DNA of 33,920 bases from a virus, in IMG/VR virus record IMGVR_UViG_3300042154_001699, positions 1 through 33,920 of that record, one strand, 5' to 3'. Made by a program: the position numbers and the translations under genes. Numbering within the stretch: the first letter of the stretch is position 1; each line of letters begins with the position of its first letter. Below the pieces are notes generated by a model. The model was not told the DNA's origin. It made no database searches and was given only the letters and a program-made list of their open reading frames with translations. Positions 17,627-31,392 of this stretch are shown piece after piece.

Positions 17627-18268
17627 ATGAATAAAGACCATGGGTATTACTTTGTAATTCCAGCCAATATCTTCCACCATAAAGATTTATCTGCTAATGC
17701 TAAATTAATGTACGGTATCGTATCTAATTTTTGTGACAGGTATGGTAAATGTACTGCATCAAATAAGTTCTTTGCAGAAGCCTTTAATAAGTCAGAAAAT
17801 ACTGTTAGTAGATGGATTAGTGAACTGGAGTTCTATGATTTATTAGATAGCTTTATAGACTTTTCAAGTGGTAATAAAAGGATTTTGACCCTATCCACAA
17901 AAATAGGGAGAGCTATCCCCAAAAATGATGAGACCTATCCCCAAAAATGGGGAGATAATACTAATATTAATAATATAAATAATAATACTATTGTCGAGAT
18001 CATCGATTTCCTAAACGATACTGCTAAAACAAACTTTAAATCTGGTAACAAATCTACTCAAGGATTTATCAATGGAAGGATAGCAGAAGGATATACCCTA
18101 GAAGATTTTAAAAGTGTTATTACAACCATGGCCAGTAAATGGATAGGTACTGAATGGGAAGAGTATTTAAGACCTTCAACTTTATTCACACCTACAAACT
18201 TTGAGAAGTATTTAAACTCTGCTGTTAAAACCAAAAAACAAAAAGAACCAATTATAATAAAAGCATAA
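17627..18268 (+). CDS. Replication initiator with winged helix domain (O-like), contains origin
   Basis: 213 aa. Residues 1-75 are a winged helix-turn-helix: YYFVIPANIFHHKDLSANAK, LMYGIVSNFCDRYGKC, FAEAFNKSENTVSRWISELE (recognition helix). The C-terminal part (about 125-205) is a DnaD-like helical region (IVEIIDFLNDTAKTNFKSG, GRIAEGYTLEDFKSVI, EWEEYLRPSTLF). The middle (residues ~88-125) is encoded by three 22-bp iterons and an AT-rich stretch, as in lambda O. The dnaB gene follows with overlapping ATGA. It is expected to bind the iterons and load DnaB. The ATG is two bases after TTAAAACCAAACAAG. Confidence 0.8.
   Translation: MNKDHGYYFVIPANIFHHKDLSANAKLMYGIVSNFCDRYGKCTASNKFFAEAFNKSENTVSRWISELEFYDLLDSFIDFSSGNKRILTLSTKIGRAIPKNDETYPQKWGDNTNINNINNNTIVEIIDFLNDTAKTNFKSGNKSTQGFINGRIAEGYTLEDFKSVITTMASKWIGTEWEEYLRPSTLFTPTNFEKYLNSAVKTKKQKEPIIIKA
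17889..18000 (+). other. Predicted replication origin: three 22-bp iterons plus AT-rich stretch
   Basis: Three direct repeats start at 17891, 17913 and 17935, exactly 22 bp apart, with core CTATCC(A/C)CAAAAAT. Copy 1 contains CTATCCACA, one base from a DnaA box, within the inverted repeat CCCTAT...ATAGGG. Copy 3 contains CCCC-AAAAAT-GGGG. They are followed by a run of almost pure A/T from 17957 to 17993. Because 22 is not a multiple of 3, the repeats encode different residues each time, so selection is on the DNA. The layout matches lambda ori inside gene O. Confidence 0.8.
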
Positions 18269-19617
18269 TGAAACAGCAACCACAAAATATAGAAATAGAA
18301 GAGCAGGTAATAGGTACTATCCTATCCCAGAGTAATAGTTTTAACATAGCAATAAATATTATAAACAAAGATTGTTTTTACAATCAAAGACTTCAAGACA
18401 TATTTGTTTCTATCCTATCATTGTATTCAACCTCTAAGCCGATAGATATTGTATCAGTAAGCAATACCCTTAGAAACAATAATAAATTAGATTCTATTGG
18501 AGGATTAGACTTCCTGATTGGATTATCTGATAAGACAAGTAATAAAACTTCTTTTGAATACCATTGCTATATACTTCTTGAACTTCATGAAAGACGTAGC
18601 GGTATTTTAACTGCAAATAAATTAATTGATGGACTTTATGATTTAAGTATTGACATTGATGAGAATATGGTAACTGCTAACCAAGTTATTTTAAGCCTCT
18701 CTAACGAAGTTTCTAATATAGGTGGCATAAGTTTAGGTGAAAGTATAATAGAATTGATTAGAGAGCAGGAAAATGAGCTTAAAGGAGATTTTAATGGATG
18801 TAGAAGTAAGTTCGTAGATTTAGATAAACTTATTGTAGGATTTAAAAACCAGCAGATGATTATTGTTGCAGGTAGACCAGGTATGGGTAAAACTACATTT
18901 GGAATTAATATTGCCTATAGACTTGCTAAGTTTGACAATACCCCAGTAGGATTTTTTAGTTTAGAAATGAGTAGTATTGAATTAACTAAAAAGTTTGCAG
19001 CTATAGAATCTCAAATATGTAACTCTAGGATAACTAACTTAGATGAACCTATTTTATTAGATTATTTTAAGAAGGCTCAAAATATTGCAGAGTTACCTAT
19101 TTATATTGACGATAAGGCTGGGTCTACAATAGATGAAATTAGATCAAGAGCAATTACGATGAAACGTAAACACAATGTTGAAATAATATTTATCGATTAC
19201 CTACAGTTGATTTCTTCAAAGGGTAATAAGGGAACAAGAGAGAATGAGATTTCCGAAATTAGTAGAAAGATAAAGTTACTCGCTAAAGAATTAAATATTC
19301 CAATAGTTGCCATTAGTCAATTATCAAGAGCCGTAGAAACTGCTGATCCTAAAGTACCTTATATGCACCACTTGAGAGAATCAGGTAGTATAGAACAGGA
19401 TGCTGATATGGTATTGATGTTATGGAGGCCAGAATACTACGATTATAAAGAGTTTGACTATAATGATGTAATGCAAGATAGTAAAGGTAAATGTGTTACC
19501 TATGTTAGAAAGAACCGTAATGGAGATATTGGGAAGGCATTAATGAATACCAATTTAGCAGTTTCCAGTTTTTATGATATTGTAGATAACTTTTCAGTCA
19601 ATAGGGATTACTTTTAA
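18268..19617 (+). CDS. dnaB: Replicative DNA helicase, DnaB family
   Basis: 449 aa, the usual length of DnaB. N-terminal helical domain (residues 1-105) begins with IEIEEQVIGTIL. RecA-like core: Walker A GRPGMGKTT at residues 202-210, VGFFSLEMS, Walker B IIFIDYLQLIS around 306-316, REISRKIKLLAKELNIPIVA, LRESGSIEQDADMVLMLWRP and YVRKNRNGD with the arginine-finger region. It unwinds DNA at the fork and is probably loaded by the initiator encoded just upstream with a one-base overlap. The 3' end contains TTGTAGATAACTTTT, also found before the annealing protein gene. Confidence 0.95.
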   Translation: MKQQPQNIEIEEQVIGTILSQSNSFNIAINIINKDCFYNQRLQDIFVSILSLYSTSKPIDIVSVSNTLRNNNKLDSIGGLDFLIGLSDKTSNKTSFEYHCYILLELHERRSGILTANKLIDGLYDLSIDIDENMVTANQVILSLSNEVSNIGGISLGESIIELIREQENELKGDFNGCRSKFVDLDKLIVGFKNQQMIIVAGRPGMGKTTFGINIAYRLAKFDNTPVGFFSLEMSSIELTKKFAAIESQICNSRITNLDEPILLDYFKKAQNIAELPIYIDDKAGSTIDEIRSRAITMKRKHNVEIIFIDYLQLISSKGNKGTRENEISEISRKIKLLAKELNIPIVAISQLSRAVETADPKVPYMHHLRESGSIEQDADMVLMLWRPEYYDYKEFDYNDVMQDSKGKCVTYVRKNRNGDIGKALMNTNLAVSSFYDIVDNFSVNRDYF

Positions 19618-19626
19618 TTATATTTG
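19594..19626 (+). promoter_or_regulatory. Possible promoter for the tRNA
   Basis: TATATTTG at 19619-19626 fits the -7 box, 16 bases before the tRNA 5' end. The -33 element is poor (TTTTCAG at 19591-19597). It starts directly after the dnaB stop codon. Read-through from the early operon is also possible. Confidence 0.4.
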
Positions 19627-19641
19627 AATAAGTTATCGGAA

Positions 19642-19747
19642 TGTGAGGTGGTGGAATTGGCAGACACGCTATCTTGTCTCGGTAGTGCTTGAGTTTTTAT
19701 TTCATCATCTTTTCTCAAGTTTGGAGGTTCGAATCCTTCCTTCACAG
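19642..19747 (+). tRNA. Class II tRNA with anticodon GUC and oversized variable arm
   Basis: Full cloverleaf: acceptor TGTGAGG/CTTCACA (one G-T pair), D arm GTG/CAC with an 11-nt loop containing GG, anticodon stem CTATC/GGTAG with loop TTGTCTC, variable arm CTTGAG/CTCAAG with a 20-nt loop (19694-19713), T arm GGAGG/CCTTC with loop TTCGAAT, discriminator G at 19747. No encoded CCA. The body resembles tRNA-Leu, but the 7-nt loop gives anticodon GUC (Asp). Position 37 is a T, which is rare. G73, G2:C71, G10, G34-U35-C36 and C38 all agree with the E. coli AspRS identity set. An altered tRNA-Leu or a non-decoding tRNA are alternatives. Confidence 0.8.
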
Positions 19748-19773
19748 CAAAATTAAATTAAATAAAATAAATT

Positions 19774-19947
19774 ATGGATCAGAACAAAGCATTAGAAATT
19801 TTAATTAACGTAGCAATAGTTGCACAATCAAAAGGAGTATTATCATTAGATGATGCAGTAGTAGTAAAACAAGCTATCGATGTATTTATTCCAAAGAAGG
19901 AAGCTGAAATAGAAGCTGAAACGGAAGATGTCCAATCCGAGGAATAA
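19774..19947 (+). CDS. Small hypothetical protein
   Basis: 57 aa (MDQNKALEILINVAIVAQSK...). An amphipathic helix is followed by LSLDDAVVVKQAIDVF and an acidic Glu-rich end (KKEAEIEAETEDVQSEE). The pattern is familiar from small Bacteroidetes phage proteins of unknown role. It starts 26 bases after the tRNA and overlaps the next gene by 20 bases. Confidence 0.6.
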   Translation: MDQNKALEILINVAIVAQSKGVLSLDDAVVVKQAIDVFIPKKEAEIEAETEDVQSEE

Positions 19948-30786: not shown

Positions 30787-31392
30787 TTATTTGATTAATG
30801 CTTTTAGTTCTTCTATCTTTCTTGGCTTTCTGCCTATTCTTTCTGGATGCTTATATTTCCATACAAATCCATACGCTTGTTTAAACTTACCTTGACAACA
30901 TCTCATAATATTTGTAGAATGTTTACCAACTTCTTTAGTAGCATCAACAAACCCATCCCATTCTTTTATAAAGTTACCTTGTAAATCGTATTGTAAAATA
31001 GGTAGTTTTTGATTATCACCCATTTTCTTTTTTGCAGATTCAGACATTTTTTTACCAATGGAAGCTTTAGATAACTTTATTCTTAATTCAGAATTTGAAC
31101 TCATATTTAGTACCCCATCTCCACCATCTGTTAAATTAACTAAACATCCTGTTTTTAAGTCAACCCTACCATATAGACTGATAAACTCCTTTTCTTTTTC
31201 TTTTGCTTCTTCTATTGTTAAATTGTCTATTAATATTTCAACATCATAATTAGTATAGTTAATAATATTAGTCCAATGTTTATTTCTGCAAGTTCTTTTA
31301 TATGCCCTTTTGTAATCATCATCAATATTACTAATCCCAATATAAAATGGTTGATTTGTGTCAAGTCTAATATGTCTATATAAATATGCCAT
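30787..31392 (-). CDS. GIY-YIG endonuclease with NUMOD domains (homing endonuclease-like)
   Basis: 201 aa. N-terminal GIY-YIG catalytic domain (YLYRHI, FYIGIS at residues 3-20, Arg at 33, EFISLYG), then two NUMOD3-like segments (SEASIGKKMSESAKKKMG-type around residues 105-125), and a NUMOD1 domain (ILQYDLQGNFIKEWD, ATKEVGKHSTNIMRCCQG, YGFVWKYK). This layout is typical of free-standing homing endonucleases such as the Seg family. It lies between the tail fibre and the structural genes and probably was inserted there (inference). No intron is seen. Confidence 0.85.
   Translation of the reverse strand: MAYLYRHIRLDTNQPFYIGISNIDDDYKRAYKRTCRNKHWTNIINYTNYDVEILIDNLTIEEAKEKEKEFISLYGRVDLKTGCLVNLTDGGDGVLNMSSNSELRIKLSKASIGKKMSESAKKKMGDNQKLPILQYDLQGNFIKEWDGFVDATKEVGKHSTNIMRCCQGKFKQAYGFVWKYKHPERIGRKPRKIEELKALIK

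What the first reader, a model, noticed from the sequence alone, without database searches (positions are those of the whole stretch)
19642..19747. Class II tRNA with Asp-type anticodon and identity set
The cloverleaf looks like tRNA-Leu with a long variable arm, but a 7-nt anticodon loop gives GUC. G73, G2:C71, G10, G34-U35-C36 and C38 are exactly the E. coli AspRS identity elements. The variable arm has a 6-bp stem and a 20-nt loop, longer than usual, and position 37 is a pyrimidine, which is rare. Asp tRNAs are class I in bacteria, so this could be a chimaera charged by AspRS, a tRNA with altered decoding, or a decoy that resists anticodon nucleases.
Basis: partly seen in the sequence, partly recalled or inferred. 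Interest (0 to 1): 0.7.

Follow-up and report, generated by a model that had tools for sequence, protein, structure and literature searches.

The report
Phage long-armed aspartate transfer RNA
This phage carries what looks like an aspartate transfer RNA built on the long-armed body that bacteria normally keep for leucine, and it belongs to a family found in many phages and in some bacteria, which suggests that the textbook division of transfer RNAs into two shape classes is not strict.

Summary
At 19642-19747 (+) lies a complete class II cloverleaf with a 7-nt anticodon loop UUGUCUC (GUC), U1-A72, G2-C71, C38 and G73. ARAGORN misses it; Rfam tRNA scores 36.4 bits in a local scan. It is not a one-off. 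Scans of viral contigs gave 50 unique class II cloverleaves with GUC (49 with G73) and 54 with GUU (53 with G73), against 1 of 30 with G73 among those with Leu anticodons. Control loop patterns give few cloverleaves. GUC members carry G2-C71 (49 of 50); most GUU members do not. In 103 of 301 genomes of the family of Pedobacter sp. SYSU D00535 the pattern hits; that genome also has an ordinary tRNA-Asp. Many GUC members share a covarying domain in the variable arm, and 37 is a pyrimidine in 95 of 104 viral members. Best reading: a Leu-derived tRNA charged by AspRS that reads Asp codons in infection and, being unlike the host tRNA-Asp, escapes host tRNA damage. Charging, decoding and the benefit are inferred. 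More distant relatives carry, at the same locus, a tRNA-like scaffold whose middle is hypervariable and lacks an ordinary anticodon arm.

The parts
19642..19747 (+). class II tRNA-Asp(GUC), whole element (positions 1-73)
   Evidence: read; RF00005 36.4 bits; rule-based parse
19642..19648 (+). acceptor stem 5' strand UGUGAGG (U1, G2)
   Evidence: pairs with 19740-19746 CUUCACA; G6-U67 here is A-U in L004-L007
19649..19667 (+). U8 to C25, Leu-type D arm UGGUGGAAUUGGCAGACAC
19669..19685 (+). anticodon arm CUAUC-UUGUCUC-GGUAG; G34 U35 C36 = 19676-19678, U37 = 19679, C38 = 19680
   Evidence: L003 changes 32, 37 and 40 only, keeping GUC and pairing
19686..19722 (+). variable region, 37 nt: stem 19688-19693/19714-19719 (6 bp), loop 20 nt
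   Evidence: stem of at least 4 bp in 50 of 50 viral GUC members against 29% of shuffles
19723..19739 (+). T arm GGAGG-UUCGAAU-CCUUC
19740..19746 (+). acceptor stem 3' strand CUUCACA
19747..19747 (+). discriminator G73 (followed by CA, no encoded CCA)
18268..19617 (+). DnaB-like replicative helicase gene, 24 nt upstream; perhaps the same transcript
   Evidence: PHROG 19, E 4.5e-92; shared transcript is inference

Best explanation
A working phage tRNA-Asp on a class II, Leu-derived body. It is probably transcribed behind the DnaB helicase gene, cut out by the host's tRNA end-processing enzymes, given CCA by the host, and charged with Asp by AspRS through G73, G34-U35-C36, C38 and G2-C71, the long arm being tolerated because none of these elements lies in it. 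It then reads GAU and GAC during infection. The foreign body and the pyrimidine at 37 set it apart from the host's class I tRNA-Asp, so that host tRNA damage aimed at the latter would spare it. Shown here: the cloverleaf, the family, and the coupling of anticodon with discriminator and second base pair. Inferred: transcription, charging with Asp, decoding. Least certain: the selective reason.
For: G73 follows the GUY anticodon, although no search pattern touched position 73: 102 of 104 unique viral GUY members against 1 of 30 with Leu anticodons. G2-C71, also in no pattern: 49 of 50 viral and 51 of 53 genomic GUC members, 18 of 54 viral GUU, 3 of 30 Leu. C38 where no pattern forced it: 51 of 53 genomic GUC and 11 of 54 viral GUU; 6 of 8 viral GUC. 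Two class II cloverleaves with the His anticodon GUG have C73 (L547, L582), and one with AUC keeps U1-A72, C38 and G73 (L440), so the discriminator seems to track the amino acid. Control loops give few cloverleaves. Pedobacter sp. SYSU D00535 has five tandem copies within 1.6 kb. Close relatives change by pairing-preserving substitutions and keep GUC. Asn identity was moved to another tRNA body by the anticodon plus G73, and minimal yeast tRNA-Asp forms depend on G73 and the anticodon (PMC9976931, passages and section 29). In 29 open reading frames of the window 428 GAU and 79 GAC occur in 7884 codons.
Against: U1-A72 replaces the G1-C72 said to be strictly conserved in bacterial tRNA-Asp. A pyrimidine at 37 (41 U and 6 C of 50 viral GUC members) should weaken decoding (recalled). 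Many related copies have a conserved domain in the variable arm, which plain decoding does not need. The lowest-energy fold is not the cloverleaf. There are no expression or charging data. More distant relatives replace it by an element without an ordinary anticodon arm.
Confidence: 0.55

Rival explanations
1. A dedicated aspartyl-tRNA that is charged but used outside ordinary decoding (for example by an aminoacyl-tRNA-dependent transferase), or a tRNA-shaped regulatory RNA; the variable-arm domain is its specific part.
For: In 22 of 101 unique GUC members with G73 the variable arm holds a GGNUUGACCA hairpin, and 49 of 101 hold CUAAC against 6 in one shuffle of each; the inner helix covaries. 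Pyrimidine 37 is near universal. In Pedobacter sp. SYSU D00535 the genes are extra to a class I tRNA-Asp, and in the family they often sit in pairs.
Against: The window's own arm is a plain hairpin without the motif. No partner enzyme was looked for or found. The GUU members, 42 of 54 with encoded CCA, look like ordinary decoders.
Confidence: 0.2
2. Anti-defence decoy: a tRNA mimic that absorbs or resists a host tRNA nuclease, with charging unimportant.
For: [quoted passage not shown] In L003 all three changes from the window lie in the anticodon arm (positions 32, 37, 40), GUC kept. Variable regions range from 15 to 93 nt in viral GUC members.
Against: Near-universal G73, G2-C71 and GUC are not needed in an uncharged decoy. 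Chromosomal spread in Sphingobacteriaceae does not fit a purely phage weapon.
Confidence: 0.1
3. Mistranslating tRNA: charged with Ser (long arm plus G73) or Leu, or converted to Asn-tRNA by GatCAB because of U1-A72, and so misreading Asp codons.
For: The long arm and G73 are SerRS determinants, and allo-tRNAs with GUC and Ser identity exist (PMC7609411, passages and section 7). U1-A72 is the tRNA-Asn pair in Pedobacter, and three Pedobacter genomes hold GatB as well as AsnRS. That U1-A72 is a GatCAB determinant is recalled.
Against: If SerRS charged them the anticodon would be free, as in allo-tRNAs (35 of 64 codons); here full cloverleaves are almost confined to GUY among the non-Leu loops scanned. 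tRNA-Ser and tRNA-Leu of the same Pedobacter have G1-C72. A73, typical of Leu, is found in 1 of 104 viral GUY members.
Confidence: 0.08
4. Decaying tRNA-Leu that drifted to GUC.
For: ARAGORN misses it; the lowest-energy fold is not a cloverleaf.
Against: Stems intact or compensated in relatives; the same combination of features in 50 viral and 53 genomic unique sequences.
Confidence: 0.04

Closest known systems
Bacterial class I tRNA-Asp (GUC)
   Same: GUC, C38, G73, and G2-C71 according to the review
   Different: 4-5 nt variable loop, G1-C72 and A37 in the ordinary one (Pedobacter copy); here a 37-nt variable region, U1-A72, U37 and a Leu-type D arm
Bacterial class II tRNA-Leu
   Same: D arm UGGYGGAAUNGGNAGACRC, class II architecture, 7 acceptor and 5 T pairs
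   Different: viral Leu members found here have Leu anticodons, A73 in 29 of 30, G1 in 28 of 30 and a purine at 37 in 30 of 30
Allo-tRNAs (8/4 and 9/3 class II tRNAs; PMC7609411 section 7)
   Same: class II with non-class-II anticodons, GUC named among the commonest
   Different: allo-tRNAs have an 8/4 or 9/3 branch and Ser identity with anticodons for 35 of 64 codons; here 7/5 and almost only GUY
Phage anti-defence tRNAs such as T5 tRNA-Tyr (PMC11555353 abstract, PMC13096335 passages)
   Same: phage-borne tRNA that may outlast damage to host tRNA
   Different: those keep the normal class for their amino acid; no anti-defence test exists for this one

Membership tests
tRNA (Rfam RF00005) | match over the gathering score | tested here: met
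   36.4 bits against 29 on 19560-19830; not reported in the filtered whole-window scan
tRNA-Asp | GUC, G73, C38, G2-C71 | tested here: met
   sequence and family counts
tRNA-Asp | G1-C72, strictly conserved in bacteria | tested here: not met
   U1-A72 in the window and in 46 of 50 viral GUC members
tRNA-Asp | class I variable loop of 4-5 nt | tested here: not met
   37 nt
tRNA-Asp | charged by AspRS, reads GAY | not testable with these tools
   no RNA data
tRNA-Leu | Leu anticodon and A73 | tested here: not met
   GUC and G73
allo-tRNA | 8/4 or 9/3 acceptor-T branch | tested here: not met
   7 acceptor pairs and 5 T pairs
tRNA-Ser / allo-tRNA | serylation | not testable with these tools
   argued against by the anticodon restriction and by U1-A72
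phage anti-defence tRNA | rescues phage from a tRNA-cutting defence | not testable with these tools

The most novel reading that the evidence does not exclude
A kind of tRNA outside the textbook scheme: class II tRNA-Asp shared by phages and Sphingobacteriaceae chromosomes, with class II tRNA-Asn (and a few tRNA-His) in other phages, in which the long arm is a docking domain with a function of its own; the phage locus is a slot for tRNA-shaped RNAs, whose extreme form is a Leu-like scaffold that displays a hypervariable RNA insert instead of an anticodon arm, used against host tRNA-targeting defences.
Probability: 0.25. Interest if true: 0.9.

Novelty: new variant of a known kind. Interest (0 to 1): 0.74.

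Why it matters
Class II tRNAs are taken to be Leu, Ser and Tyr, besides Sec and the Ser-type allo-tRNAs (PMC7609411 and PMC9976931, passages and sections seen). A recurrent class II tRNA-Asp and tRNA-Asn, missed by ARAGORN when the arm is long, would mean that annotated tRNA sets of phages and of a common bacterial family are incomplete, and gives a natural experiment on what AspRS, AsnRS, GatCAB and the ribosome tolerate. The Pedobacter copies make charging and function testable in culturable bacteria.

Tried and rejected
BLAST of the window region and of tRNA elements against INPHARED found only short partial matches, several under annotated tRNA-Leu genes, or nothing, so no cultured phage with the element was found by those queries. 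The idea that the class II gene is the only tRNA-Asp of Pedobacter was tested and rejected: one genome has a class I tRNA-Asp, and two others show class I-like anticodon-to-T-arm strings in a pattern search. The idea of a property of the whole phylum was rejected: 3 of 395 drawn genomes, all three also present in the family search. A 4-base anticodon that uses U37 was considered; the varying base at 37 (U, C, A) argues against it. Split or intron-bearing tRNA-Leu genes were considered for hits without a T arm nearby; those rows were left out of the cloverleaf counts. Single-strand folding gave no support. A host call by terminase gave a match in 32 of 151 Sphingobacteriaceae genomes, the best two only 42-46% identical over about 270 residues, so the host stays open. 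Literature: ten searches in an open-licence library showed no description of class II tRNA-Asp or tRNA-Asn in the listings or passages that I saw; most subscription papers are not held. Papers seen: PMC9976931 (passages, section 29), PMC7609411 (passages, section 7), PMC13096335 (passages), PMC11555353 (outline and abstract); others in search listings only.

Counts are of unique sequences that passed my parser (D arm fixed by pattern, anticodon stem at least 4 of 5, T stem at least 4 of 5, acceptor at least 6 of 7), and related sequences are not independent. C38 was forced and G10 in all patterns. In one search hits within 130 nt of a locus end were dropped. In one search three of 25 long arms without the exact hairpin were left out of the alignment.

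Full report
What is there. The window is one whole virus record of 33,920 nt, a tailed phage with terminase, portal, major head protein, DnaB-like helicase and an Erf-like annealing protein by PHROGs. Between the DnaB gene (18268-19617) and a short reading frame that begins at 19774 lies a full cloverleaf at 19642-19747. In standard numbering: acceptor UGUGAGG/CUUCACA with U1-A72 and G2-C71; U8 to C25 UGGUGGAAUUGGCAGACAC, of the kind seen in tRNA-Leu; anticodon stem CUAUC/GGUAG; loop U32 U33 G34 U35 C36 U37 C38; variable region of 37 nt with a 6-bp stem and a 20-nt loop; T arm GGAGG UUCGAAU CCUUC; G73, then CA, so CCA is not encoded. ARAGORN reports nothing in the window and the filtered Rfam scan nothing, but a local Rfam scan gives tRNA with 36.4 bits over the whole model. 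Free folding of the single strand prefers another shape, so the case rests on comparison.

Close relatives. Nine contigs encode a full-length helicase relative and a tenth only its first 87 residues. Six of them (L002 to L007; helicase 98-100% identical) carry the same element. L003 differs from the window at three bases, all in the anticodon arm: 32, 37 and 40; the last turns U30-G40 into U30-A40, and GUC is untouched. L002 adds one change in the T loop. L004 to L007 change G6 to A (G-U to A-U), one D-arm base, two bases of the variable loop, and in two of them a T-loop base. So the stems are kept or improved and the anticodon is kept. Three relatives with 84% helicase identity (L008 to L010) have another tRNA-like element at the same place.

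The family. Further scans took 35 = C or G (limit reached), 35 = U with 34 not G (limit reached), GUR (53 stretches) and GUCNC with a looser D arm (70 stretches). I parsed complete class II cloverleaves by rule. Among unique raw hits in the held viral loci not cut by a locus end, a full cloverleaf was found for 55 of 78 (UGUY), 41 of 45 (UGUCNC), 5 of 107 (35 = C or G), 7 of 104 (35 = U, 34 not G) and 4 of 38 (GUR). Over all held viral loci there are 151 unique cloverleaves. GUC: 50, of which 49 with G73, 46 with U1-A72, 49 with G2-C71. GUU: 54, of which 53 with G73, 45 with U1-A72, 18 with G2-C71, 42 with GCCA at the 3' end. Leu anticodons: 30, of which 29 with A73 and 27 with C2-G71. The remaining 17 have scattered anticodons. 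Exceptions: L025 (GUC with A73 and G1-C72), L062 (GUU with U73), one UAG with G73. Of three with GUG, two have C73, as tRNA-His has (recalled), and one, with a doubtful 142-nt arm, has U73. None of positions 1, 2, 71, 72, 73 or 37 was in any pattern. The discriminator and second pair thus go with the anticodon as expected if AspRS and AsnRS do the charging. The sequences are related, so the Fisher value (6.6e-26 for G73) is only indicative.

A pyrimidine at 37 is a family mark: 95 of 104 viral GUY members against 0 of 30 Leu.

Bacterial copies. The same UGUY pattern in the genome collection (84,980 species by the tool's description) gave 18 stretches. Those from Pedobacter sp. SYSU D00535, P. 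caeni and Pedobacter sp. PLR are complete class II tRNA-Asp genes with the window's own loop UUGUCUC, five in tandem in the first. With a looser pattern 103 of 301 genomes of that family have a hit, and the reversed control pattern has none in the rows shown; in the genus 3 of 3; in the phylum 3 of 395 drawn, all three also among the positives of the family search. In the first genome the tRNA genes that I fetched include an ordinary class I tRNA-Asp (G1-C72, A37, G73) and two ordinary tRNA-Asn (the one printed has U1-A72, G73); its Ser, Leu and Tyr tRNAs shown have G1-C72 or, in two Leu, G1-U72. The class II genes are therefore extra there. Unique genomic GUC cloverleaves: 53, with G73 in 52, U1-A72 in 51, G2-C71 in 51, C38 in 51.

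The variable arm. In viral GUC members it runs from 15 to 93 nt, in GUU 11 to 41, in Leu 9 to 28; a stem of 4 bp or more is present in 50 of 50, 47 of 54 and 21 of 30, against 29%, 40% and 26% of shuffles. Many GUC members, in phages and in Sphingobacteriaceae, share a domain there: GGNUUGACCA in 22 of 101 and CUAAC in 49 of 101 (6 in one shuffle of each). In the 22 aligned arms, 20 distinct rows, the inner helix is paired in 20 of 20 at six neighbouring pairs, four of which vary, with G-C/U-A and A-U/U-A exchanges; weaker pairs of the predicted structure hold in 16 to 19 of 20. The window's arm lacks this domain.

Second tRNA-like family, at the same locus in the 84% relatives. These elements have a nearly fixed 5' part (AGUCAGG plus Leu-type D arm) and 3' part (T arm plus CCUGACU), but the middle is unrelated from one to the next. 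In 145 loci I found 156 5' parts; 97 unique complete elements, and 37 hits with no 3' part by my rule; A73 in 83 of 97; an ordinary 5-bp, 7-nt anticodon arm in 3 of 97 (0.6% of shuffles); 25 of 4656 pairs of middles share an 11-mer. L008 and L009 have 98.1% identical helicase genes and matching element ends, but unrelated middles. Among 34 pairs with similar flanks, 23 have identical middles and 11 have middles no more alike than shuffled ones, with nothing between. The exact 25-mer of the 5' part is absent from 296 drawn Bacteroidota genomes. This looks like exchange of cassettes inside a tRNA scaffold. Its function is unknown; my guess is a display of anti-host RNA.

How it works. I think the window element is charged by AspRS and reads Asp codons, which are 507 of 7884 codons in 29 reading frames, and that its odd body and base 37 protect it from a host attack on tRNA. 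The comparison supports the identity; nothing here tests transcription, charging or decoding. U1-A72 is the main misfit with tRNA-Asp; since three Pedobacter genomes hold GatB and AsnRS, conversion to Asn-tRNA is a live though unlikely rival. The conserved arm domain in other members is the main reason to doubt plain decoding.

Novelty. The reviews read define class II tRNAs as Leu, Ser and Tyr, with Sec and the Ser-type allo-tRNAs. Ten literature searches showed no class II tRNA-Asp or tRNA-Asn. I file it as a new variant of a known kind.

Noticed in passing
L008, L009, L010 downstream of the helicase; 145 loci: tRNA-Leu-like scaffold (AGUCAGG...CCUGACU, mostly A73) with a hypervariable middle of 26-146 nt in place of anticodon and variable arms; between similar flanks the middles are either identical or unrelated.
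   Followed up: partly
L335-L346, L255, L260; viral L047, L074, L360, L392, L393, L401, L403, L405, L408, L413, L417: Conserved domain in the variable arm of class II tRNA-Asp (GGAYAAAC, GGNUUGACCAC, GCUAAC in most) with a covarying inner helix.
   Followed up: partly
L253:3983-5600: Five tandem class II tRNA-Asp genes in Pedobacter sp. SYSU D00535, spaced mostly about 368 nt, with promoter-like and terminator-like stretches (by eye).
   Followed up: partly
L338:861-1337 (-), L346:866-1339 (-): The tandem class II pair lies next to a divergent gene that looks like an Lrp/AsnC-family regulator (by eye, not searched).
   Followed up: no
L547, L582: Class II cloverleaves with anticodon GUG and C73, as expected of tRNA-His.
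   Followed up: no
L440: Class II cloverleaf with anticodon AUC, U1-A72, C38 and G73: an Asp-type member with A34.
   Followed up: no
L259, L264, L266: Class II genes with GUU and GCCA end in Microvirga and Mesorhizobium genomes; ARAGORN calls them tRNA-Asn.
   Followed up: no
window 30787-31392 (-): Reading frame that looks by eye like a GIY-YIG endonuclease, between structural genes.
   Followed up: no
window 19642-19747: The Rfam scan of the whole window at gathering thresholds missed this tRNA although it scores above the cut-off in a local scan.
   Followed up: partly
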